29,627 bases of DNA. It comes from a virus. The position numbers and the translations under genes were made by a program. The notes beneath the pieces are model-generated. The model had not been told where the DNA came from. It worked only from the letters and a program-made list of their open reading frames with translations, and ran no database searches. Where the stretch lies: positions 1-29,627 of IMG/VR virus record IMGVR_UViG_3300024327_001041; one strand, 5' to 3'. Below are positions 1,225 to 27,421 of this stretch, piece after piece (the first letter of the stretch is position 1; each line of letters opens with the position of its first letter).

Positions 1225-1551
1225 TCAATTCATTGAAAAGCTTTCTCCGCAGCCACAAGTTGATGTAGCGTTAGGATTGATAAACTGAAAACCCTTTCCT
1301 TGTAATCCATCTTGAAAATCTAATGCCATACCTTTTAGGTATATCATACTCTTTGCATCCATAAATATTTTATACCCGTCATTCTCAAAAATTGTATCTT
1401 TCTCTTCCCCTGATGTAAAATCTAAATCATAGGAAAGTCCAGAACATCCACCACCTTTTACTGCTAATCTTAAACCAATATCACTAGGCAATTCACTAAT
1501 CAAAAACTTTACTTGTGCTGATGCTTTTTCTGTAATAGTAATGAAATCCAT
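1225..1551 (-). CDS. A-type iron-sulfur cluster carrier (IscA/ErpA/SufA-like)
   Basis: A 108-residue protein with the full A-type carrier signature: GGGCSGLSY with Cys36, and the C-terminal TCGCGESF with Cys99 and Cys101. These three Cys hold an Fe-S cluster for delivery to apoproteins. Length is normal for the family (105-120). Start ATG 1551 is preceded by AAGGGA. In cells these proteins work with the Isc or Suf scaffold in the cytoplasm. In a phage it could support host Fe-S enzymes during infection or load phage Fe-S proteins. IscA, ErpA and SufA cannot be told apart here, so no symbol is given. Its start overlaps the upstream 68-aa ORF by 43 bp, and its first ten codons are imperfectly duplicated there. 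Confidence 0.93.
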   Translation of the reverse strand: MDFITITEKASAQVKFLISELPSDIGLRLAVKGGGCSGLSYDLDFTSGEEKDTIFENDGYKIFMDAKSMIYLKGMALDFQDGLQGKGFQFINPNATSTCGCGESFSMN

Positions 1552-2864: not shown

Positions 2865-3965
2865 TTATCCTTTCATCTTGTCCATAATAAATGTTAATGA
2901 AGTTAATTCTCCATCTCTCAAAATTACAAAATATGCTTTATCGCCTATTTTTTTAGATTTTACTTTTGTAGCTAGAAGTTTCCATTTGATATCAACAAAA
3001 TCCATCTTTATAATAATATCACCAATTTTTAGAATACCTTCAGCTGGACTTCCTGGCACAACTTCTTGTACATAAGCACCATAACCATATTTAAATAAAC
3101 CTATTTTATCTTCCAAGTCTAGTTTTTTTACTGGACGGAAAACGATACCCATATATGGTCGAGTAATTCTTTCATCAGTTGGAAGTGCTAACAATTGTTT
3201 AACTGTTGACTGAACATAATCTCCGTCAATAGCAAAACCAAGTCCAACACTACCTCTGCTATTACCACCCGTAATTATCATAGTATTTATACCAACTACA
3301 TGACCATGTGAATCTAGTAGTGGGCCACCAGAGTTGCCGGGATTAATAGCTGCATCAGTCTGGATGTATGGTACGAATGGTGCTGACTTAGGTATAAACC
3401 TATTCAGTGACGATACGTTACCAAATGTAATACTAAATGATTGTCCCATCGGAGAACCAATAGCAATAACATCTTGACCTAGCTCTGGAGTTTCACCCCA
3501 TGTTAAAAAATCAAAAACTTTTCCTTCTTCAGCATTATTAATTTTCAACAATGCTATATCAGAGTCTTCATCATAATTAACTAAATCTGCTTCGTATGTT
3601 ATATCAGATTGAAAAATAACTATTATTTTTCCACCATCAATAATATTGTTTATAACGTGTGCATTAGTTAAAACATATCCATCTTCACTAATAACAAAAC
3701 CAGAACCAACGTGTTGTGGGTCTTGTTTAGGATTCATCCTCTCTTTTGGTTGTCCTTGAGGTTCACGAAACTTAAACCCACCACGTTCTTGTGGTTGCAT
3801 ACCGGCACTCACATTGCCTCTTTCTGCGTGTATCTCTACTACAGCGGGAAGTACTTTCTTTACAATACTTGTTTTATAAGTGTGGTCAGCATTGACGATT
3901 GTACTTACTCCCAATAACAGAAATGATATAAAAAAACATAATATATTTTTTTTATAGTGCAACAT
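2865..3965 (-). CDS. DegP/HtrA-like periplasmic serine protease
   Basis: A 366-residue exported protease. Residues 1-26 are a Sec signal peptide (basic MLHYKK, hydrophobic core, VNA/D cleavage site). Residues about 30-262 are a trypsin-fold protease with the full triad: His103 (TNAHV), Asp136 (DSDIALL) and Ser212 (GNSGGP). Residues about 270-362 form a single PDZ domain. Cellular DegP has two PDZ domains and DegS one plus a membrane anchor, so this is a compact one-PDZ form. A glycine/glutamine/proline-rich stretch (53-85) resembles the LA loop. In the periplasm it could degrade or refold envelope proteins, protect the infected cell or remodel receptors. Ribosome site AAGGAGCACAAG. Confidence 0.93.
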   Translation of the reverse strand: MLHYKKNILCFFISFLLLGVSTIVNADHTYKTSIVKKVLPAVVEIHAERGNVSAGMQPQERGGFKFREPQGQPKERMNPKQDPQHVGSGFVISEDGYVLTNAHVINNIIDGGKIIVIFQSDITYEADLVNYDEDSDIALLKINNAEEGKVFDFLTWGETPELGQDVIAIGSPMGQSFSITFGNVSSLNRFIPKSAPFVPYIQTDAAINPGNSGGPLLDSHGHVVGINTMIITGGNSRGSVGLGFAIDGDYVQSTVKQLLALPTDERITRPYMGIVFRPVKKLDLEDKIGLFKYGYGAYVQEVVPGSPAEGILKIGDIIIKMDFVDIKWKLLATKVKSKKIGDKAYFVILRDGELTSLTFIMDKMKG

Positions 3966-9095: not shown

Positions 9096-9195
9096 TTTAA
9101 GCCCTTTGTTTACAAAGACTTACAAAGTTTCTCAAAAAACCCTGTAAACCCTTATAAAACAAGGACTTATAAACCCTTTATTTATGAGGACTTAG
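9096..9195 (-). repeat. degenerate AT-rich repeats downstream of GAPDH
   Basis: Between the GAPDH stop and the early promoter are degenerate short repeats. On the plus strand these include AGGACTTA twice, AAACCCTT or close variants several times, ACTTACAAAG/ACTTATAAA, and the palindrome CTTTGTTTACAAAG (9105-9118). A near-late-promoter CATAAATA overlaps the GAPDH stop on the minus strand. No clear terminator hairpin with a U tract. The stretch may be regulatory or iteron-like. Confidence 0.5.
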
Positions 9196-10213
9196 GGGGA
9201 TTCTTCTTTTTTGTGAGAAAATCGAGTAAATCTATCACCCGACAGCAGTATCCATGCTCATTATCATACCAAGCGAGGAGCTTGAGAAATCTCTTATTTA
9301 GCACGTTTGTAGAAAGGCAGTCAATAACAGAAGAATATTCACTACCAATATAGTCCACGGAAACCAGTGGCTCACATGATACATTGATAATACCTTTCAT
9401 TTTACCTTTTGCTTCTTTTTCAAATACTGTGTGAATATCTTCAACATCTGTATCTGCCAATAACTCTATTGACATATCCAACAATGAAACATTTGGAACT
9501 GGAACTCTGATAGATGAGCCATCAAGTTTTCCTTCCAACTCTGGTAATACTACACCCACATTTTTAGCTGCACCAGTACTTGTAGGTATCATTGAAATTG
9601 TAGCAGCTCTTGCTCTTCGTAAATCAGGATGGGAAGAGTCCAATAATGTTTGTCCCATTGTAAATGAATGGACAGTTGTAATAAATCCTTGTTTGATTCC
9701 ATATTGTTTTTGTAATACTTTAAGCAATGGTGTCAAACAGGTAGTAGTACAAGAGGATGCTGATACAATATTATTCTCCTGCAACTTATAATCTGTTTCA
9801 TTTACTCCGTAGATTAATGTAGCATCTACATCTGAAGCTGGTGAACATACAATAACATTCTTTGCACCTGCTTCTATATGTTGAGACAGAGAATGTTTAT
9901 CAGTAAACTTACCCGTTGAGTCTATAACATAATCAACTTCCAACTCTCCCCAAGGTAATTTTGCTGGAGTGTTTCTATCAAAGTTCGGTATCAAATGTCC
10001 ATCAATGATTAAGTTATCTAACTCATATGAAATCTCACCATCAAAGTGACCGTGAATAGAATCATACTTAAACAAGTGAGCTCTAACATCAACCGTAGTT
10101 CTTGCGTTAATAGCAACAATGTTATACTTTGAATCTTTAATAAGTGTACGAATTAAATTTCTACCAATCCTACCAAAACCATTAAATGCTATGTTTATCT
10201 TTTTCTCTGCCAC
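9182..10213 (-). CDS. gap: glyceraldehyde-3-phosphate dehydrogenase
   Basis: A 343-residue, full-length GAPDH. It has the NAD(P)-binding Rossmann motif FNGFGRIGR (10-18), catalytic Cys155 in SASSCTTTC and His182 in VHSF. The phosphate-binding block DLRRARAATISMIPTSTGAA runs from about 197, and AWYDNEHGY is at about 314-322. It interconverts glyceraldehyde-3-P and 1,3-bisphosphoglycerate. The Asp that normally follows the second beta strand (AIND) is Ala (AINAR), so NADP use or relaxed specificity is possible. SCTTNC is SCTTTC and VHAYTNDQ is VHSFTMGQ. Starts at GTG 10213 behind GAGGTGGAAGA and overlaps the nuclease gene by 32 bp. A phage GAPDH is unusual; the gene looks intact. Confidence 0.95.
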   Translation of the reverse strand: MAEKKINIAFNGFGRIGRNLIRTLIKDSKYNIVAINARTTVDVRAHLFKYDSIHGHFDGEISYELDNLIIDGHLIPNFDRNTPAKLPWGELEVDYVIDSTGKFTDKHSLSQHIEAGAKNVIVCSPASDVDATLIYGVNETDYKLQENNIVSASSCTTTCLTPLLKVLQKQYGIKQGFITTVHSFTMGQTLLDSSHPDLRRARAATISMIPTSTGAAKNVGVVLPELEGKLDGSSIRVPVPNVSLLDMSIELLADTDVEDIHTVFEKEAKGKMKGIINVSCEPLVSVDYIGSEYSSVIDCLSTNVLNKRFLKLLAWYDNEHGYCCRVIDLLDFLTKKKNPPKSS

Positions 10214-15617: not shown

Positions 15618-16715
15618 TTACTCCTCTATTCTATATATACTCCCAAATGTAGTACTTGTCGCATCCTTCCACGAAACATCTTCCTGTCTCACATATCCTT
15701 CCTGTGGTATTTTTTCTGTTAAGTATAACTCCATCATCGTCAATAATCCGATAGCAGTTGTATATTCAATAGCTGTCAAATGTCTACCATTGATATCTCT
15801 TGGACGAAAGATTTTAAGATAACTACGTTCATCATCCATACCCTTACCACTAGCTGATGCATAAAGTATTACTGCATCCTTTCTGGTTTTTGGAATCTTA
15901 CTGAATATCCCTGTTAAAACTGTTTGTGGAATTTTTAAGTCATTAAAAAGAAAATCAACATAATCATGGTGTCCAATTCTTCTTAATGTTTTGTAGTTAA
16001 GACTTAATAATTTATGTTTACCATCCATTGATTTAGCAAATGTTCCTAAACCACCAGAAGTATTAAAAGCCTCATACTCTCTACCGTCAAGTGTAATCTT
16101 TTCGTATCCTGTCAATGCATCTACTGTATTGTATTTTCCATTTTCTAATACTTGACAGTCACCAAGATACTCATTGACTAAACCTTCACCACTCCATGAA
16201 GTATAATATCTTAGTTTGTTTGAAGCATTCTGTGATAATGCTCCAACACGAATTTTTACACTTGTAGGATTTTCTATATCTTTGAGTAAGTCATTTGCTA
16301 CAACAGTAGACATTCCTGGCGCAAGTCCACAATGTGGCATAGTGAAAGGAATCTTATCTGATTTAAGGGAATCTATAAACTTATCAAGTGCATCATCCTC
16401 TGACAAATCAAAGTATGGTACACCCAACTCAAAACAAGCTTTGTATAAGTTTATATTTTGATGAAACGGAAGTGCGTTAACGATAAGAGTTTTACCATTA
16501 ACGAATTGATTGAATTGAGTACAATGACCATCGTAAGTTGGTTTTGTAATATCCAACTTATAATAATCATCATCATTGATGAAAATATTGTGTTTTTCAA
16601 TCTGATCAGCTATAGATATTTTGTATCCACAGCCGGTACTATTGAGTAGTTGATATATTGTGGAGCCAATAGTTCCAGCTCCAACTATTCCGATATGTAT
16701 ATTCTCAGTTTTCAT
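15618..16715 (-). CDS. saccharopine dehydrogenase-like oxidoreductase
   Basis: A 365-residue protein with an N-terminal Rossmann fold (IGIVGAGTIGSTI, about 8-20), VNALPFH (about 80) and PYFDLSED (about 98). Next comes PHCGLAPGMSTVVA (about 129-142), the blocks of the saccharopine/lysine dehydrogenase family. NTSGGLGTF and TAIEYTTAIG fit the C-terminal domain. Members reduce or oxidise amino-acid imines (saccharopine, lysine, carboxynorspermidine), so substrate cannot be set from the sequence. An unusual metabolic gene for a phage. No Shine-Dalgarno is seen; a promoter lies immediately upstream, so the mRNA may be leaderless. Confidence 0.85.
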   Translation of the reverse strand: MKTENIHIGIVGAGTIGSTIYQLLNSTGCGYKISIADQIEKHNIFINDDDYYKLDITKPTYDGHCTQFNQFVNGKTLIVNALPFHQNINLYKACFELGVPYFDLSEDDALDKFIDSLKSDKIPFTMPHCGLAPGMSTVVANDLLKDIENPTSVKIRVGALSQNASNKLRYYTSWSGEGLVNEYLGDCQVLENGKYNTVDALTGYEKITLDGREYEAFNTSGGLGTFAKSMDGKHKLLSLNYKTLRRIGHHDYVDFLFNDLKIPQTVLTGIFSKIPKTRKDAVILYASASGKGMDDERSYLKIFRPRDINGRHLTAIEYTTAIGLLTMMELYLTEKIPQEGYVRQEDVSWKDATSTTFGSIYRIEE

Positions 16716-20927: not shown

Positions 20928-20999
20928 TTAGTGATACAGATAACCAGCAACTGCCCAACCCGCCAAAAAGATAAGGGCTTTACATAGATATGGATGCAT
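20928..20999 (-). CDS. single-pass mini membrane protein, 23 aa
   Basis: MHPYLCKALIFLAGWAVAGY plus LYH: a 23-residue hydrophobic peptide with ribosome site AAAAAGGAGAACTATA. It overlaps the end of the nucleotidyltransferase gene by 20 bp and precedes the holin candidate. Likely a membrane peptide; function unknown. Confidence 0.55.
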   Translation of the reverse strand: MHPYLCKALIFLAGWAVAGYLYH

Positions 21000-21597
21000 T
21001 ATAGTTCTCCTTTTTAATTTTTAGTTTCTTACCAATTTCTTTGAAAACGTCTTTTGCCAGTCTAGCATTTTTCGTCATAAGTCCTTCCTTGAACTTGCCA
21101 AACCTGTCTTTAATAACAAACTCACGCATCTTAGAACCAGACATACCAGAAACACCCTCAGCGTCTGGGTCACGATCTCCTGCGGAGACAACTGAAAAAT
21201 CTTTTATATTATCAAGGTCACTATCAACATATTTACTCATATTCTTTTTGAATTCGTTTACCCGATCACTACCAACTACGAAAACAACTTTCTCAAACTT
21301 ATCATTATTTAATTTATCTAATACATCAAAGGGTGTCTTTATAGATGTATCAGTATTTATAACATTGCCAAAAACATCTTTCAATACTTTCACTTTCATT
21401 TTGAATGACAAAGGATTCTTTTTACTATCTTCGGTCTTTGAAGGAAATATCATAGCTGTTGCTTTTTCTTTCTTTGCAACACTAACGACTTTAGCAATAA
21501 GTTTGCCGTGTCCAACAGTAGGGGGATTCATCCTACCGAAAGAGAATACAGCTGTATTACCTTTTGCTTCGTTTATGAATTTCCTGTATGTTTTCAT
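20980..21597 (-). CDS. capsid-targeted nucleotidyltransferase (NMNAT/cytidylyltransferase superfamily)
   Basis: Residues 1-11 (MKTYRKFINE/A) match the T4 internal-protein capsid-targeting leader, with gp21-type cleavage expected after Glu10. The mature part is a nucleotidylyltransferase: FGRMNPPTVGHGKL carries the (T/H)xGH motif (Thr27-Val-Gly-His30), and MSGSKMRE (152-159) is the SxTxxR-like motif. The superfamily adenylates NMN or similar substrates. The protein would be packaged in the head and enter the host with DNA, perhaps altering NAD or nucleotide pools from the first minute. Length 205. ATGA overlap with the gene upstream. Confidence 0.85.
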   Translation of the reverse strand: MKTYRKFINEAKGNTAVFSFGRMNPPTVGHGKLIAKVVSVAKKEKATAMIFPSKTEDSKKNPLSFKMKVKVLKDVFGNVINTDTSIKTPFDVLDKLNNDKFEKVVFVVGSDRVNEFKKNMSKYVDSDLDNIKDFSVVSAGDRDPDAEGVSGMSGSKMREFVIKDRFGKFKEGLMTKNARLAKDVFKEIGKKLKIKKENYNASISM

Positions 21598-21956
21598 TTT
21601 ACTTTTTTAATCCAATCGTTTATTTTCTTAACTACATCCTTTGCGGATTTAATCTTTGACTTGCGTAATCTTTTTGTGTCAAACTTATAACTCATCTGAA
21701 ACATTTCCAGAGTACCATCACGGTCAACTCTCAAGTTTGCGTGACGGGAGTTATGCCATTCAGTACCACCTTTACTTGCTTCTTTGTCCATAGAAAATTT
21801 AACCATCAATGAAACTCTATCTTCACCACCAAGAGTCGATATCTGGATATGGACAACAGGAGCTTTAATACCCTTCTCAATTTCTTTCTTCCAATCCTCT
21901 ATATCACTCATATCAAAATATGAGGCTTCTGTCATCAACTCTTTGTATGTTTTCAT
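21594..21956 (-). CDS. capsid-targeted internal protein, 120 aa
   Basis: Leader MKTYKELMTE/A (cleavage expected after Glu10). Mature domain: VVHIQISTLGGEDRVSLMVK, EWHNSRHANLRVDRDGTLEM, then a basic helical tail (RLRKSKIKSAKDVVKK). Looks like a compact alpha/beta protein; no family recognised. Small, basic and packaged proteins of this kind in T4 (IPI) protect phage DNA by blocking host restriction enzymes. Coupled to both neighbours by ATGA overlaps. Confidence 0.7.
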   Translation of the reverse strand: MKTYKELMTEASYFDMSDIEDWKKEIEKGIKAPVVHIQISTLGGEDRVSLMVKFSMDKEASKGGTEWHNSRHANLRVDRDGTLEMFQMSYKFDTKRLRKSKIKSAKDVVKKINDWIKKVK

Positions 21957-22204
21957 TTTTTTATAACCTTTGATTTCTTGAGATTTTTGCCTGCCATTTT
22001 AGAAACTGCAATCGCCGTTGCGTTTTTCTCATTAGTTACTTCCCATTTTCCACTTTTGTCTGTAACATAATTGAAGACATATTCTTTACCATCAACCTTA
22101 GAAACAATCTGTGCTCCACCATGCATTGATGAATGTCTACCACCAACTATATCATCAAAGGTAGCTTCCTTTTTAGCTTCTAAGAATGTTATAAAGTTTT
22201 TCAT
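21953..22204 (-). CDS. capsid-targeted internal protein, 83 aa
   Basis: Leader MKNFITFLE/A, the short-spacing form with Glu at residue 9. Mature domain contains GGRHSSMHGGAQIVSKVDGK and YVFNYVTDKSGKWEV, beta-rich, and ends in a basic KNLKKSKVIKK tail. No family recognised. About 8 kDa after cleavage, a size typical of T4 internal proteins. ATGA overlaps on both sides. Confidence 0.68.
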   Translation of the reverse strand: MKNFITFLEAKKEATFDDIVGGRHSSMHGGAQIVSKVDGKEYVFNYVTDKSGKWEVTNEKNATAIAVSKMAGKNLKKSKVIKK

Positions 22205-22467
22205 TTTAGTTTCTTATAGTATTTGTTAATATTCTTGTACATCCAATCCATATCCTTTTGGGATGTACTGGATTTACTACGTTTCATAATCTTTTTAACT
22301 TCATCAACTTCATCTTCTGTACCAAAGAACTTAGCTAACATAAGATAATTTTCTGTATGAGCATTATTGTCTTCATTCTCTTTGTACTTCTTCATCAATT
22401 TTTTCTTATCTATCTTATCAGAGTACTTACCAAAACCTGCTTCCATAAAGGTTTTATAACTTTTCAT
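22201..22467 (-). CDS. capsid-targeted internal protein, 88 aa
   Basis: Leader MKSYKTFME/A (short form, Glu9). The mature part is basic and helical: KKLMKKYKENEDNNAHTENY, LMLAKFFGTEDEVDEVKKIM, WMYKNINKYYKKLK. No family recognised. ATGA overlap with the next gene; a one-base overlap with the previous one. Confidence 0.68.
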   Translation of the reverse strand: MKSYKTFMEAGFGKYSDKIDKKKLMKKYKENEDNNAHTENYLMLAKFFGTEDEVDEVKKIMKRSKSSTSQKDMDWMYKNINKYYKKLK

Positions 22468-22790
22468 TAGAACATCTCTCCATCTTGTGCTTCGATTTCG
22501 TCTTTGTATTCGTCAGCAAATTCCTGTGCAACTGCTTCCTTTTCCTGTTTGTTAAACTTAACGCCAGGAAATTCTTTTGCATATTTCTTTGCACCATCAT
22601 CTACAAGATACTTCCAAAGTTTAGGAGCTTTCTTATGGTCATACTTTCCAGACTTCATTTTCTTCTGGATGTTCTTGACAATAGGAATAAGCCTTTGTTT
22701 ATATAGTTGTGCATCATTGTCAATAAACAACTTGAGTTCAATGACCATATCTTTATCTACTGCTTCTATAAATGTCTTAAAGTTTTTCAT
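22467..22790 (-). CDS. capsid-targeted internal protein, 107 aa
   Basis: Leader MKNFKTFIE/A (short form, Glu9). Mature domain IELKLFIDNDAQLYKQRLIP, MKSGKYDHKKAPKLWKYLVD and DGAKKYAKEFPGVKF is a pattern I recognise as a small domain found alone in many phages, of unknown function; here it is fused to a head-targeting leader. Acidic C-terminus (DEIEAQDGEMF). Confidence 0.72.
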   Translation of the reverse strand: MKNFKTFIEAVDKDMVIELKLFIDNDAQLYKQRLIPIVKNIQKKMKSGKYDHKKAPKLWKYLVDDGAKKYAKEFPGVKFNKQEKEAVAQEFADEYKDEIEAQDGEMF

Positions 22791-23086
22791 TCTTCTTCCT
22801 CTTCTTCGGATTCATCTTCCTCTGTCTTAACTTTTTTACTTTTGCGACCATCACCACCAGCACATCGGCGTCTTTCTCCACCCTTCTTAATAAATTCTTT
22901 AACTAGTTCTTCTGCTTTCTCGTTATCACCCTTCCACTCTTTGTCAATCTCATTGAAAAACTTTTTCTTTTCTTCGTCTGACAAATCTTCTGGACTATCA
23001 ACTTTATACTTAGCTAACTTCTTATCAAAGAACTTTTGATACTCTTCTTTACTGCCTTCCGACATAAAACTTTTAAAAGCTTTCAT
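22787..23086 (-). CDS. capsid-targeted internal protein, 99 aa
   Basis: Leader MKAFKSFMSE/G (Glu10, Gly at P1'). The mature domain EEYQKFFDKKLAKYKVDSPE then DLSDEEKKKFFNEIDKEW is a small helical module I associate with marine T4-like phages. The tail is unusual: a Gly/Arg/Lys stretch (GGERRRCAGGDGRKSKKVK) followed by a pure acidic run of Glu with Asp and Ser. The opposite charges side by side could bind nucleic acid and then be displaced. Confidence 0.7.
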   Translation of the reverse strand: MKAFKSFMSEGSKEEYQKFFDKKLAKYKVDSPEDLSDEEKKKFFNEIDKEWKGDNEKAEELVKEFIKKGGERRRCAGGDGRKSKKVKTEEDESEEEEEE

Positions 23087-23313
23087 TTTGAATCCCCTTT
23101 ATATTCAGTATTATGAACTTTTTCCCAAGCATCTTTACCCTTATATCGTTTGCCCATATGAAATACATTTCGTCTTTGCCAAGCCATCGCACTCCGTGGA
23201 TTACACTTACATTGATACCTTACTTGTGCATCACACTTTCTACAAAATCTGGATTTAATAGATGTCGTTTCCTCTCCATTCTGTTGGACTTCCTTGTTCT
23301 CCACTTCCGTCAT
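23083..23313 (-). CDS. small zinc-binding protein, 76 aa
   Basis: Cys cluster FCRKCDAQVRYQCKC gives four Cys ligands for one zinc (CxxC...CxC). The remainder is basic (AWQRRNVFHMGKRYKGKDAW). Ribosome site AAGGAAAGTA before ATG 23313. It overlaps the preceding 84-aa gene by 59 bp in another frame and the next one by ATGA. No capsid leader. Function unknown. Confidence 0.65.
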   Translation of the reverse strand: MTEVENKEVQQNGEETTSIKSRFCRKCDAQVRYQCKCNPRSAMAWQRRNVFHMGKRYKGKDAWEKVHNTEYKGDSK

Positions 23314-23509
23314 TACTTTCCTTTTCTTTAAGTTTTAATAATTCTTTTCCTATATCTGTTAATCTATCATCACCATTAATAGTGAAATCTCTATCTCTTA
23401 TATCTTCAACTATTCTAGGATCATGTTCAAAACGATATTGGTCTTGTGTTTGATACTTGGCAATAAATCTATCTAGTATTCTTCTTAGCTCTAATAAATC
23501 TTCTAACAT
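23255..23509 (-). CDS. small helical protein, 84 aa
   Basis: Start set at ATG 23509 (MLEDLLELRRILDRFIAKYQ) behind TAAGGAGAATATT instead of 18 codons upstream. N-terminal amphipathic helix, then RIVEDIRDRDFTINGDDRLT and a C-terminal disordered acidic/Gly/Ser tail. The tail coincides with the 59-bp overlap into the zinc protein. Not recognised. Confidence 0.6.
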   Translation of the reverse strand: MLEDLLELRRILDRFIAKYQTQDQYRFEHDPRIVEDIRDRDFTINGDDRLTDIGKELLKLKEKESNDGSGEQGSPTEWRGNDIY

Positions 23510-23519
23510 AATATTCTCC

Positions 23520-24746
23520 TTACCAGTCCTTTTCGATGGTAAAATTTGCATGAGAAAACTCAAGTCTGTCTACTAACTTGACAGCACTACCGTCTTTAGC
23601 ATCAATTGCAACAAATCCTTCTGGAGCTGTTACTTTGAAACCATCAGGTGTTTTCAAAAATGTTCCAATACCTTTAATTGTTTCCAACTTTCTAATAACC
23701 ATTTCTTTTGCATCAAGGATACCCAAGTAAGTAGCCATAGTGAAATACAATTCGTCTTTGAATTTCTTTAAAGTCTTTTTAGATTCTTTCTGAATATCTT
23801 GATATACTTTTTTACCTTTATCTGATTTCTTTGAATCAATTTCCTTTGTCATCCTATCCATGTAATATGTTTCAAATTCTTTAACAAGTTTTTTCGTATC
23901 AGCAATCTTTGCACCAGCACGAATCTTAGTATTAAAAAAGATTTTCATAAATGGTGCTAGACCATGTTTAGAATTATCAGCAGTTTCTTTTGCCAACAGG
24001 TTTAAGAACTTCCCTGCTTTAGAAACTGCACCTTTAATTTGATTTATTTTTCCTTCAAGTTTCTTTGTTTCACTTGAAGTAAATGTAGCTGCGTTTGCAG
24101 TATTCAAGTATGCATCGTCAAACCAAACATTTTTGGTTTTCTTAAAATCACTTGCTGATACTCCAAATGAAGCAGATAATGAATCAATGCTGTTTCCTGT
24201 ATACTTCGTGTGCCATACAACTCCAAGATGTGCTTTTCTCATTTGAGAAGCTAAGTCACTATCTTCGGGTACAGCATAGGTGATAGTATTAGGCCCAAAA
24301 GTCAACATACTTTGTCCATCAATAGTTTGTTTCTTCAAATCACCTTTAGAAAACATAATGTCACCCTGATAGACTCCATCAGTTATTCCGAGTTCGGGTA
24401 AGTATTTCAATGCAAGTTTTATTTTATCTGAAGGCCCACCCGATCCGTGATTCGCACTTATATCTGCGTCTGTATAATTAATTTTGGGGGTCTTGTTAAA
24501 GAGTGATTTTATTGCAACGAAAAACTTTCCGTTCTCTGGATTGATACCAGCAAATATTGCTGGGGCTCCATCCCACTTTACAGTGATATTAGTTTTACTC
24601 TTTCCACCTGCCAACATATCGTTGAGTGAATTTAAAAACTCTATCGCTGTTTTCGCACCCTTAACACCATTGTTGATGATTTCATCTTCAAGGTGCTCCA
24701 TGTGCGTATTCTTTGCTTCGTTTATTATTTTTTTAAAAGATAACAT
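23520..24746 (-). CDS. capsid-targeted ligase-like protein (DUF6267-type), 408 aa
   Basis: Leader MLSFKKIINE/A (Glu10) indicates packaging. The mature protein holds NITVKWDGAPAIFAG: K57-W-D-G60 has the form of motif I (KxDG) of ATP-dependent ligases and cappers. EGFV (376-379) and VKLVDRLEF (Lys390) near the C-terminus resemble motifs IV and V. I remember the family as DUF6267, common in marine T4-like phages; the number is from memory. The long central helical region is unlike standard ligases. It could be a nucleic-acid ligase that seals DNA or RNA on entry, or a nucleotidyltransferase-fold protein of other function. Weak ribosome site; start overlaps the methyltransferase by 22 bp. Confidence 0.7.
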   Translation of the reverse strand: MLSFKKIINEAKNTHMEHLEDEIINNGVKGAKTAIEFLNSLNDMLAGGKSKTNITVKWDGAPAIFAGINPENGKFFVAIKSLFNKTPKINYTDADISANHGSGGPSDKIKLALKYLPELGITDGVYQGDIMFSKGDLKKQTIDGQSMLTFGPNTITYAVPEDSDLASQMRKAHLGVVWHTKYTGNSIDSLSASFGVSASDFKKTKNVWFDDAYLNTANAATFTSSETKKLEGKINQIKGAVSKAGKFLNLLAKETADNSKHGLAPFMKIFFNTKIRAGAKIADTKKLVKEFETYYMDRMTKEIDSKKSDKGKKVYQDIQKESKKTLKKFKDELYFTMATYLGILDAKEMVIRKLETIKGIGTFLKTPDGFKVTAPEGFVAIDAKDGSAVKLVDRLEFSHANFTIEKDW

Positions 24747-25864
24747 ATTTCATATTTTTCAAGGTGCATATTGTTTTTAGTAATTTCTTTAGGAGGCATG
24801 ATCTTAATTTCGTCAATAAGGTTAAATTTTTCCTGAGCAATATTTCTCATATCATTACCCATCTCATAACCTCTACAAAGTCTACCCATTACAAAACAAA
24901 ACAATCCGCCAGATTTTAAAACACTATTACATTCATTAACAGTTTTTCTCCAATACAAATCAAGCCATTCTTCGTATGTTTCATATAAAGAAGTTGACTG
25001 TAATTCACTTCCACCGTACAACTCTAAATCATAATACGGGGGACAAAAGAAAACTTTATCATATTCTTTATCTATAACATCCGTCATTTTTTCTGACGGT
25101 GTACAGAATGTTTTTAGTTCATAAGGTGAGCCATCAAACAAACCACCAGTATGAATATGTTTAAAAAGTTCTTCCGATGTTTTTAACACTTCTGGTTGAA
25201 CATCAACTATATGCAATGATGAATAATTTGTATTATCCTTTGTAGCTAATATAGGTGTTGCCCAAGATGCAGATGGAATAAGAACTTTTTGTTTTTTATT
25301 TTCTATATATTTATCAGTCTCATTTAATAAAGTTTTATATATAACAGGACTAAAAATTGACATCTGCCCTGTTATAGTTTTCATTGTTACAGTAAATGCC
25401 TCATAATCATATTTATATGAGTCTTTAAATACTGACGGCATTGTAAAAAACCGACACATCTTACCTTTTTCTAAAGCATCCTTATATGCTACTTTGATAC
25501 TCATTCCATCAAATGCTTTACAATCAAGAATACTCTCAAGATTTATATTTCTTATCAACCTAACATTATTAGGCTTCTGTTTAACTGAATTATTTTCAAT
25601 CTCTACAATATCAACAGGTTTAATTTCTTTATAAGACAATCTTTTATTAAAGTAATATTTCAATGGCTCATCATTATGAATAAAATCATAACACCATTTA
25701 TAAAAATTGTCTTTGGACTTTAAACTTATTACTCTAATATCATCAGATTTGAATTTATCCCATAAAATACCTATTTGCTTTGTTTGAAGAAAATCCTCAA
25801 AGGTTAATGGGTTTAAATCCTTTCTAATTATTTCAATAAAATCCTGCTCATTATATATTTTCAT
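24725..25864 (-). CDS. SAM-dependent DNA methyltransferase-like protein
   Basis: A 379-residue protein with FFCPPYYDLELYGG (Cys274-Pro-Pro-Tyr277), the motif IV of amino-methyltransferases with Cys in place of the usual Asp, Asn or Ser. LIPSASWATPILA (about 195-207) stands where the SAM-binding motif I is expected, and HIVDVQPEV (about 218) fits motif II. The PPY core is that of N6-adenine or N4-cytosine enzymes, but the changed first residue and divergent motif I leave activity uncertain. It starts MKIYNEQDFIEI without an E-A/G site, so it lacks the head leader although it sits inside the packaged-protein cluster. Confidence 0.75.
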   Translation of the reverse strand: MKIYNEQDFIEIIRKDLNPLTFEDFLQTKQIGILWDKFKSDDIRVISLKSKDNFYKWCYDFIHNDEPLKYYFNKRLSYKEIKPVDIVEIENNSVKQKPNNVRLIRNINLESILDCKAFDGMSIKVAYKDALEKGKMCRFFTMPSVFKDSYKYDYEAFTVTMKTITGQMSIFSPVIYKTLLNETDKYIENKKQKVLIPSASWATPILATKDNTNYSSLHIVDVQPEVLKTSEELFKHIHTGGLFDGSPYELKTFCTPSEKMTDVIDKEYDKVFFCPPYYDLELYGGSELQSTSLYETYEEWLDLYWRKTVNECNSVLKSGGLFCFVMGRLCRGYEMGNDMRNIAQEKFNLIDEIKIMPPKEITKNNMHLEKYEICYLLKK

Positions 25865-25880
25865 CTAAATCCTCAAATAA

Positions 25881-27233
25881 TTATTTTTCTTTTTTTGTAT
25901 GGCTGAAAATATGCCCGAACATTTCTTTCTTTTCTATATAGTTTCTAGCATAAAAAAGACCTTTTTTCTTCTTATCGGCTTTTGAACGAATTTGCAAAAA
26001 TTCTTTTCCATCCATTAAAATCCTAATTCTTGGTAACACAAAACCACCATCTCTAGGCTTAGAATCAATAAGTTCTGCTGTAAAATTATGTGCTTTTGCC
26101 AAAGATATAAGTTTTGCTTTTGTTTGTTTGAACGTATATGATTCAAATGTACCCTTATTCAAATGAACCATTTCTATATTTTCACCTAAAGTAGCATGAT
26201 TGATGATAGCTTTAAATAAGTTTGTTATAGAACTCATATCTTCTGTTTTAGTTGAAAAATCATTCTTAAATTGTTTAAGAGCAGTTTTATATACTAAATT
26301 AATAGCACCAGTAACATTACCTTTTTTTACAAGGTTTTCGTATTTTGTCTTTATTCCTGATATATCAATTCCAAAAGTGTCCCAAAGTTCAACAAAATTT
26401 GAAAACTTAGAACCACTAACTTGTCCGAATTGTCCAACTGCTCCGAATTTAAGTGACAAATTTAGTTTTCTAACAACAGTACTTCCATCAATTAAAGTTT
26501 TGACTTCAACATATATATCAGTCTTGGTTTTCTTTTGATCAGACAATCCATCAGCAACAACTTTTATCTCATCCAAAATACCATTAGATTTAAAATACTT
26601 TTCCCATTTCTCTACATTTTTTGACTTAGTATACGCATTAGCTGAAAGAAACATTTCATTTCTCAGTTCTTCAAGTTCTGGGTTAATCAAATCTGCAAAT
26701 GGTCTTTTGCCCATATTAATAGAAAGTTTAATTATATCTTTTACTTTATTATCAGTAGTTGTTGCCTTAATTTCTTTATTTAATTTTAGTTTATATAAGA
26801 TTTTGTTTAATGTTTTTTCTGTCATTGACTTGTCTGCAAACTTCATAAATATCATCGCTGCAAAAACTCCTTCAGCAACATCTCCCTGTTTGTCTATTTT
26901 TTTTTCACCCTTATTTGACACGCCAGGACTACCATCACCTGTATCTACAATATTACCTTTAATCTTATTTGCTTTTTTCCATCTATCAACTATTTTTTCA
27001 ATACGTTTCTGAATGTCTTGTCTTTTCTTTGGCCCACCAGAAAATCTTGCTTTAACATAGCCTTTTTCATTTCCAACCATAGGAAGTGGAAGTTTATTTG
27101 GCATATCTTTAAGTAACTTTAATAATTTTTTTAAAGCGTTCTTATCTAATTTACTCTTAAACTTATCAATTTCCTTGTTTGTAGTTAAAGGAACATCATA
27201 TGCTTCAGCAATAAATTTCTTAAACGGTTTCAT
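25881..27233 (-). CDS. capsid-targeted PD-(D/E)XK-like protein, 450 aa
   Basis: I start it at ATG 27233 so that it opens with the head-targeting leader MKPFKKFIAE/A; an in-frame ATG three codons upstream overlaps the previous stop and is equally possible. Middle region GDVAEGVFAAMIF (Glu121) followed by KTDIYVEV (Asp239) and LNLSLKFGAVGQFGQ (Lys262) has the order of a restriction-endonuclease-fold site, with Ser in place of the second acidic residue of (D/E)xK. It may be a nuclease delivered with the DNA, for example to attack the host chromosome or competitors, or an inactive DNA-binding relative. Very basic throughout. Confidence 0.65.
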   Translation of the reverse strand: MKPFKKFIAEAYDVPLTTNKEIDKFKSKLDKNALKKLLKLLKDMPNKLPLPMVGNEKGYVKARFSGGPKKRQDIQKRIEKIVDRWKKANKIKGNIVDTGDGSPGVSNKGEKKIDKQGDVAEGVFAAMIFMKFADKSMTEKTLNKILYKLKLNKEIKATTTDNKVKDIIKLSINMGKRPFADLINPELEELRNEMFLSANAYTKSKNVEKWEKYFKSNGILDEIKVVADGLSDQKKTKTDIYVEVKTLIDGSTVVRKLNLSLKFGAVGQFGQVSGSKFSNFVELWDTFGIDISGIKTKYENLVKKGNVTGAINLVYKTALKQFKNDFSTKTEDMSSITNLFKAIINHATLGENIEMVHLNKGTFESYTFKQTKAKLISLAKAHNFTAELIDSKPRDGGFVLPRIRILMDGKEFLQIRSKADKKKKGLFYARNYIEKKEMFGHIFSHTKKEK

Positions 27234-27238
27234 AGTTC

Positions 27239-27421
27239 TCATTTTCCAATTTTACACAATGGGCAATCATCCACGTTCAATGAACGAAACGGACACAATT
27301 TATAATGGTCAATATTTGTAGCTAATACTCTACTCAATAGAGAATATTCTCCAACCTCTTTATCTTCCTTTACTGCTTTCTCTGCTACTTCCGCAAACAT
27401 CTCTTTTATATCTTTACTCAT
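27239..27421 (-). CDS. small zinc-binding protein, 60 aa
   Basis: Helical acidic N-terminus (MSKDIKEMFAEVAEKAVKED) and a C-terminal Cys pattern LCPFRSLNVDDCPLCKIGK, which could bind zinc, possibly as a dimer. No ribosome site stronger than chance. It stands between the fibre-like gene and the packaged nuclease-like gene. Function unknown. Confidence 0.6.
   Translation of the reverse strand: MSKDIKEMFAEVAEKAVKEDKEVGEYSLLSRVLATNIDHYKLCPFRSLNVDDCPLCKIGK

What the first reader, a model, noticed from the sequence alone, without database searches (positions are those of the whole stretch)
23520..24746. Ligase-like protein predicted to be packaged in the head
The 408-aa protein combines the capsid leader with a KWDG motif and C-terminal EGFV and VKLV motifs reminiscent of covalent nucleotidyltransferases. 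A ligase that enters with the DNA could seal genome ends or nicks, or act on host RNA before any phage gene is expressed.
Basis: partly seen in the sequence, partly recalled or inferred. Interest (0 to 1): 0.7.

Follow-up and report, generated by a model that had tools for sequence, protein, structure and literature searches.

The report
Ligase-fold enzyme with head-packaging tag
This marine virus of bacteria (a T4-like phage) encodes an uncharacterised protein whose predicted shape and invariant residues match RNA and DNA ligases, and whose first ten amino acids match the tag T4 uses to load proteins into its head, so it is probably injected into the host together with the viral DNA.

Summary
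The ORF is real: 408 aa, minus strand, 23520-24746. It is Pfam DUF6267 (E 5e-118), a family of unknown function with relatives in about 467 phage records.

(1) Fold. AlphaFold2 with 89 relatives (pLDDT 88.7, pTM 0.86) gives a covalent-nucleotidyltransferase core: the first 22 structural matches are RNA/DNA-type ligases (Naegleria RNA ligase Z 9.0). K57-D59-G60, D129, E376-G377 and K390 are invariant in 89/89 sequences. No ligase is recognised by sequence, a helical insert splits motifs IIIa and IV, and there is no OB domain.

(2) Packaging. Residues 1-10 (MLSFKKIINE|A) match the T4 IPIII capsid-targeting sequence in exact register; 8 of 51 window genes carry such leaders (shuffles: mean 0.3). 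In published virion proteomes, S-CREM2 and S-SM1 enzymes with this leader are in the particle. Cyanophage DUF6267 lacks the leader and starts about where cleavage would leave the mature protein.

Enzymatic activity and substrate are untested. The most likely reading is a virion-delivered RNA-ligase-like enzyme; some relatives carry adjacent, similarly tagged polynucleotide-kinase-like phosphatases and kinases.

The parts
23520..24746 (-). DUF6267 gene, 408 aa: predicted ligase-fold covalent nucleotidyltransferase with N-terminal capsid-targeting leader
24717..24746 (-). Leader codons 1-10 (MLSFKKIINE); F4, I7, I8, E10 in the register of the T4 IPIII CTS; predicted prohead-protease cut E10|A11 (motif I-N-E|A)
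   Evidence: disordered (pLDDT below 50 over residues 1-14)
24684..24710 (-). Invariant mature N-terminal block, residues 13-21 (NTHMEHLED); the leaderless cyanophage homologues begin here
24567..24578 (-). Motif I K57-W-D-G60 (predicted nucleophile K57), invariant K, D and G
24360..24368 (-). Motif III-like Q127-G-D129 (Asp where ligases have Glu)
24198..24227 (-). Motif IIIa-like strand, residues 174-183 (LGVVWHTKYT), H179 invariant
23685..24077 (-). Helical insert, residues 224-354 (five helices) between motifs IIIa and IV; much reduced in the ~298 aa cyanophage homologues
23610..23621 (-). Motif IV E376-G-F-V379, E and G invariant
23571..23582 (-). Motif V V389-K390-L-V392, K390 invariant
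20980..21597 (-). Cytidylyltransferase/NMNAT-like protein with leader MKTYRKFINE|A; genetic partner of DUF6267 (adjacent or fused in cyanophages)
25881..27242 (-). 453-aa protein (PHROG_3560, unknown) with leader MRTMKPFKKFIAE|A
21594..23086 (-). Five small leader-bearing genes (21594-21956, 21953-22204, 22201-22467, 22467-22790, 22787-23086): predicted further head cargo

Best explanation
The protein is a virion-packaged covalent nucleotidyltransferase with an RNA-ligase-like fold. Inferred path: the 10-residue leader docks it on the scaffolding core of the prohead; the T4-gp21-type protease cuts after E10; the mature enzyme (from A11) stays in the filled head and is ejected with the DNA. Inside the cell K57 would attack ATP (or NAD+) to form lysyl-AMP, helped by D129, E376 and K390, and AMP would be passed to a nucleic-acid end, most likely to seal broken RNA (for example tRNA cut by host defence nucleases) before any phage gene is expressed. 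Supported by data here: gene, family, invariant motifs, predicted fold, leader register, virion presence of leader-bearing proteins in related phages. Inferred: packaging of this protein itself, cleavage, adenylation, RNA as substrate, the defence role.
For: Fold: AF2 pLDDT 88.7, pTM 0.86; VIA-align rows 1-22 are all RNA, tRNA or DNA-type ligases, best Naegleria RNA ligase Z 9.0, rmsd 3.5 A, 187 aligned; T4 Rnl2 Z 7.2; an independent shallower model gave 50 of 50 ligases. Invariant catalytic set; E376-K390 spacing of 14 equals E312-K326 of Naegleria ligase (residues named in the entry titles). Leader: exact T4 IPIII register in 82 of 90 distinct DUF6267 leaders, E10 in 88 of 90, positions 4, 7, 8 and 10 being those shown to matter in T4 (PMC9026906). 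S-CREM2: 4 of 21 virion-detected non-structural proteins versus 1 of 162 undetected ORFs carry the exact leader, p 0.0006. S-SM1 GC190, detected in virions (PMC3037559), starts MKKFSAFLNE|A. A relative 81% identical has gp21 and a gp23 with FLNE|A in the same contig. PNK-like HAD phosphatases, mostly leader-tagged, lie directly upstream of, and P-loop kinases directly beside, DUF6267 in some relatives. No OB domain, as in Rnl-type RNA ligases.
Against: No sequence-level ligase signal: hhalign and Pfam on 89 members negative; Foldseek PDB has no significant hit; Z 9 is only moderate. Motif III is D, not E; motif V lacks the second lysine. End-healing genes are found in few relatives and not in the window. 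DUF6267 of cyanophages has no leader, so packaging is not essential to its function everywhere. No virion proteome was found for a phage with a leader-bearing DUF6267.
Confidence: 0.55

Rival explanations
1. A packaged DNA ligase-like enzyme: it enters with the genome and seals nicks or the genome ends in the injected DNA, or repairs DNA cut by host restriction.
For: DNA ligases (human LIG1, LIG3, archaeal) are also among the structural matches, Z 6.0-6.5 and 6-7.3; possible nuclease-like proteins are among the neighbours (by eye).
Against: Matches to RNA ligases are consistently higher (Z 7-9); no OB-fold domain, a general feature of DNA ligases (established knowledge); the protein ends 18 residues after motif V.
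Confidence: 0.2
2. A nucleotidyltransferase that is not a nucleic-acid ligase: it works with the NMNAT-like cytidylyltransferase partner, for example adenylating a protein or small molecule, or using NAD+ while the partner regenerates NAD+ from NMN.
For: A cytidylyltransferase gene lies in 74 of 83 cyanophage-clade loci, overlaps DUF6267 in Syn1 and is fused in an S-PM2 record; PHROG_455 joins both; weak Foldseek hits of model 2 include NAD+-ligase adenylation domains; unusual invariant H15-x-x-H18-x-E-D21 block at the mature N-terminus.
Against: Top structural neighbours are ATP-dependent RNA ligases; the weak Foldseek hits are above E 0.8; NAD+ ligases need an Ia domain not seen here.
Confidence: 0.2
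3. A packaged but catalytically inactive internal head protein that kept the fold.
For: Motif III Asp and single-lysine motif V.
Against: Complete invariance of K57, D59, G60, D129, E376 and K390 across 89 divergent sequences is what an active site shows.
Confidence: 0.1
4. The leader is an ordinary N-terminal helix, and the enzyme acts only after expression in the infected cell, as presumably in cyanophages whose homologue has no leader.
For: Cyanophage DUF6267 lacks the leader (0 of 30 distinct N-termini) and T4-GC71 is not named as virion-detected in the text of PMC3037559.
Against: Exact T4 CTS register with E10 in 88 of 90, clustering of leader genes next to DUF6267 (44/148 upstream, 26/137 downstream versus 43/707 further away), and virion detection of proteins with the same leader in S-CREM2 and S-SM1.
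Confidence: 0.15

Closest known systems
Naegleria gruberi RNA ligase / T4 RNA ligase 2 (Rnl2-type RNA ligases) and trypanosome REL1
   Same: Predicted nucleotidyltransferase core, order of motifs I, III, IIIa, IV, V, E-to-K spacing of 14 between motifs IV and V as in Naegleria ligase, no OB domain after motif V.
   Different: No detectable sequence homology; ~130-residue helical insert between IIIa and IV; Asp in motif III; K-x-V motif V; no C-terminal domain; virion leader.
T4 internal head proteins IPI-IPIII and Alt (CTS-targeted, gp21-processed, ejected)
   Same: 10-residue leader in exact register; window neighbour MKTYRKFINEA versus T4 IPII/IPIII MKTYQEFIAEA.
   Different: T4 IPI is a small inhibitor and Alt an ADP-ribosyltransferase; no ligase-fold protein is known to me among T4 internal proteins.
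Pfam DUF6267 / T4-GC 71 of cyanophages
   Same: Direct member, E 5e-118.
   Different: No function assigned (no paper names it); cyanophage members examined have no leader, and one clade has a shorter insert.
T4 Pnkp plus Rnl1 RNA repair system
   Same: Ligase-fold gene with adjacent PNK-like phosphatase or kinase in some relatives.
   Different: Here the healing enzymes are often leader-tagged too; the window itself has none; no substrate shown.

Membership tests
DUF6267 (PF19782) | Match above the curated cut-off over the whole profile | tested here: met
   395 bits against cut-off 27, profile 1-376 of 376
Covalent nucleotidyltransferase (ligase/capping) superfamily | Fold of the adenylation domain | tested here: met
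   On predicted models only: Z up to 9.0 to RNA ligases, ligases fill the list; Foldseek alone not significant
Covalent nucleotidyltransferase (ligase/capping) superfamily | Motif I KxDG with invariant Lys | tested here: met
   K57, D59, G60 in 89 of 89
Covalent nucleotidyltransferase (ligase/capping) superfamily | Motif III acidic residue (Glu) | tested here: inconclusive
   Asp129 in 89 of 89, not Glu; residue-level superposition not available
Covalent nucleotidyltransferase (ligase/capping) superfamily | Motif IV EG and motif V Lys | tested here: met
   E376, G377 and K390 in 89 of 89; the place of the second motif V lysine is V392
Covalent nucleotidyltransferase (ligase/capping) superfamily | Lysyl-nucleotide intermediate | not testable with these tools
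   needs biochemistry
Rnl1/Rnl2 RNA ligase families | Sequence-profile similarity | tested here: inconclusive
   hhalign against Rnl2 and another phage RNA ligase family, and Pfam on 89 members: no signal; the phage-only profiles were shallow
ATP-dependent DNA ligases | C-terminal OB-fold domain after motif V | tested here: not met
   Protein ends 18 residues after K390, the model shows only a helix there
T4-type capsid-targeted internal proteins | 10-residue N-terminal CTS, hydrophobic at 4, 7, 8, Glu at 10, cut after L/I-x-E | tested here: met
   MLSFKKIINE|A; register in 82 of 90 leaders
T4-type capsid-targeted internal proteins | gp21-type prohead protease in the same phage | tested here: inconclusive
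   Present in 6 of 12 leader-clade records, one with an 81% identical DUF6267 in the same contig; the window itself is a fragment without head genes
T4-type capsid-targeted internal proteins | Presence in the virion and processing | not testable with these tools
   No virion proteome found for a leader-bearing DUF6267 phage; supported only for other leader proteins

The most novel reading that the evidence does not exclude
These phages carry in their heads a ready-made nucleic-acid repair kit (ligase-fold DUF6267, PNK-like 3'-phosphatase, P-loop kinase, NMNAT-like enzyme), each loaded by its own capsid-targeting tag, that heals and seals cut tRNA or DNA in the first moments of infection, before transcription, against host nuclease defences.
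Probability: 0.15. Interest if true: 0.85.

Novelty: new variant of a known kind. Interest (0 to 1): 0.62.

Why it matters
DUF6267 is carried by hundreds of T4-like phages and had no function. Assigning it to the ligase-fold superfamily gives a concrete, testable enzyme. The link between a simple 10-residue leader and published virion proteomes means that injected protein cargo of uncultured marine T4-like phages may be readable from sequence alone; the paper reporting the S-CREM2 virion enzymes left open whether they were contaminants, and the shared leader argues that several were packaged on purpose.

Tried and rejected
Single-sequence search against PDB sequences and profile search: only coiled-coil noise. 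Foldseek on both models: carbonic-anhydrase rows with rmsd about 18 A are artefacts; clear ligase rows appeared only with VIA-align, and weakly in BFVD. hhalign with Rnl2 and S-CREM1-type RNA ligase alignments, with and without the insert, scored no better than a reversed profile. Pfam and NCBIfam: no ligase family. Search for DUF6267 in the literature: no paper. A regex for DUF6267-cytidylyltransferase fusions in 247 loci found none; the S-PM2 fusion is seen only as a BFVD record. Kinase/phosphatase neighbours were considered as proof of an RNA repair operon and rejected as proof: only 10 P-loop and 7 HAD genes among 164 leader-clade loci. DnaK rows match only the helical insert.

Full report
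WHAT IS THERE. The finding is an intact minus-strand ORF, 23520-24746, 408 aa, in a 29.6-kb IMG/VR fragment of a T4-like phage; its gp41-like helicase is closest to Methylophilales phage Melnitz and cyanophages at about 53%. The product is Pfam DUF6267 (E 5.3e-118) and PHROG_455. tblastn finds relatives in 467 phage records, mostly cyanophages, plus pelagiphage HTVC008M, Melnitz and Stenotrophomonas phage DLP6. Scans of viral contigs gave 240 further loci in three main clades: the window's clade, a DLP6-like clade, and a short cyanophage clade.

THE LIGASE-LIKE PART. In an alignment of 89 members (30-81% identity to the window) the residues K57, D59, G60, Q127, D129, H179, E376, G377, K390 and R394 never vary. 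They fall in the order of motifs I, III, IIIa, IV and V of the covalent nucleotidyltransferases, except for a helical insert (residues 224-354) between IIIa and IV, which is about 50 residues shorter in the 298-aa cyanophage form. A first AF2 model (47 sequences) had pLDDT 80; the second (89 sequences) had pLDDT 88.7 and pTM 0.86, with only residues 1-14 below 50. The few non-ligase rows are DnaK lids that match helices. Plain Foldseek gave nothing significant, and sequence profiles do not connect the family to any ligase family. I therefore claim the fold and a superfamily-type active site, not membership of a named ligase family. The motif IV-V spacing (E376 to K390, 14) equals that of Naegleria ligase (E312 to K326, residues named in the entry titles). 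Two departures, D129 for Glu and V392 for the second motif V lysine, leave catalytic competence open. There is no OB domain, which argues against a canonical DNA ligase.

THE HEAD-PACKAGING PART. In T4 the first 10 residues of IPIII suffice for packaging, residues 4 and 7 matter for targeting and 8 and 10 for processing, and gp21 cuts after L/I-x-E (PMC9026906). T4 IPII and IPIII begin MKTYQEFIAE|A. The window protein begins MLSFKKIINE|A and its neighbour, the cytidylyltransferase-like protein, MKTYRKFINE|A. Eight of 51 window genes match the pattern against 0.30 expected. In leader-bearing DUF6267 clades 82 of 90 distinct leaders keep the exact register while other positions vary, with Glu at 10 in 88. 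The cyanophage homologues have no leader and start just before the invariant HxEHxED block, that is, about where cleavage would leave the mature protein.

AN OUTSIDE TEST. The published virion proteome of cyanophage S-CREM2 (PMC10665884) lists enzymes that the authors could not tell from contaminants. I translated 198 of its ORFs: the exact leader is present in SAM hydrolase ORF6 (MKDFDSFLEE), ORF13 (MKDLHSFLTE), APH-like kinase ORF14 (MKRFDAFLTE) and cytidylyltransferase ORF154 (MKNFSSFLTE), all detected in virions, and in 1 of 162 undetected ORFs (Fisher p 0.0006; a looser pattern gave p 0.007). The exact-register form of the test was chosen after seeing the loose one. The Cas9-like ORF12 has FASFMAEA after about 17 residues. 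In S-SM1, T4-GC190 was detected in virions (PMC3037559) and begins MKKFSAFLNE|A, while its DUF6267 neighbour has no leader and is not named in the text as detected; the supplementary table could not be read. A gp21-type protease occurs in 6 of 12 leader-clade records, including the contig of an 81% identical DUF6267, whose gp23 has the site FLNE|A.

CONTEXT AND MECHANISM. Leader-bearing genes cluster beside DUF6267 (44 of 148 immediate upstream and 26 of 137 downstream genes, 43 of 707 further off). In the cyanophage clade a cytidylyltransferase gene lies in 74 of 83 loci, and the two are fused in one S-PM2 record. In a minority of relatives the neighbour is a HAD protein, mostly leader-tagged, matching PHROG_415 'polynucleotide kinase' (L095/L096, L114, L124 abutting or overlapping; L131 nearby) or a P-loop kinase weakly matching PHROG_505. 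Healing (phosphatase, kinase) plus sealing (ligase) is the logic of T4 Pnkp and Rnl1, which makes RNA repair against host nucleases the best guess for the substrate, at roughly 40%. Shown here: family, motifs, predicted fold, leader statistics, correlation of the leader with virion presence. Inferred: packaging and cleavage of this protein, adenylation, substrate, role.

VERDICT. It is a new variant of known kinds (ligase-fold nucleotidyltransferase; T4-type packaged internal protein), and the combination was not found in the papers searched.

Noticed in passing
S-CREM2 OR473000 (L248, L250): Odd virion-detected enzymes of S-CREM2 (SAM hydrolase, APH-like kinase, cytidylyltransferase, ORF13; Cas9-like ORF12 with an offset leader) carry T4-type capsid-targeting leaders; a search of the proteome paper for 'leader' and 'internal protein' found neither word.
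   Followed up: yes
window 20980-27242, minus strand: A cargo island: eight genes with T4-like capsid-targeting leaders; most encode small proteins with no known family.
   Followed up: partly
L095:4396-5001, L096, L114, L124, L131: HAD phosphatase genes matching PHROG_415 polynucleotide kinase, mostly leader-tagged, sit directly upstream of or near DUF6267.
   Followed up: partly
L036, L037, L038, L082, L065, L149: P-loop kinases of the zeta-toxin/PSTK/PNK type, some with leaders, next to or near DUF6267.
   Followed up: partly
L118:4204-5001, L151:3452-4228: Leader-bearing proteins with PD-(D/E)xK-like motifs by eye (possible packaged nucleases); no Pfam hit.
   Followed up: no
window 9182-10213, minus strand: Phage-encoded glyceraldehyde-3-phosphate dehydrogenase (Pfam Gp_dh_N and Gp_dh_C), an unusual auxiliary metabolic gene.
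   Followed up: no
window 15618-16715 and 1225-1551, minus strand: Saccharopine-dehydrogenase-like protein and an A-type iron-sulphur carrier protein (Fe-S_biosyn).
   Followed up: no
window 24725-25864, minus strand: 379-aa protein with weak DNA-methyltransferase similarity (PHROG_498 E 2e-6), overlapping the DUF6267 start, no leader.
   Followed up: no
window 2865-3965, minus strand: DegP/HtrA-like trypsin plus PDZ protease with a signal-peptide-like N-terminus.
   Followed up: no
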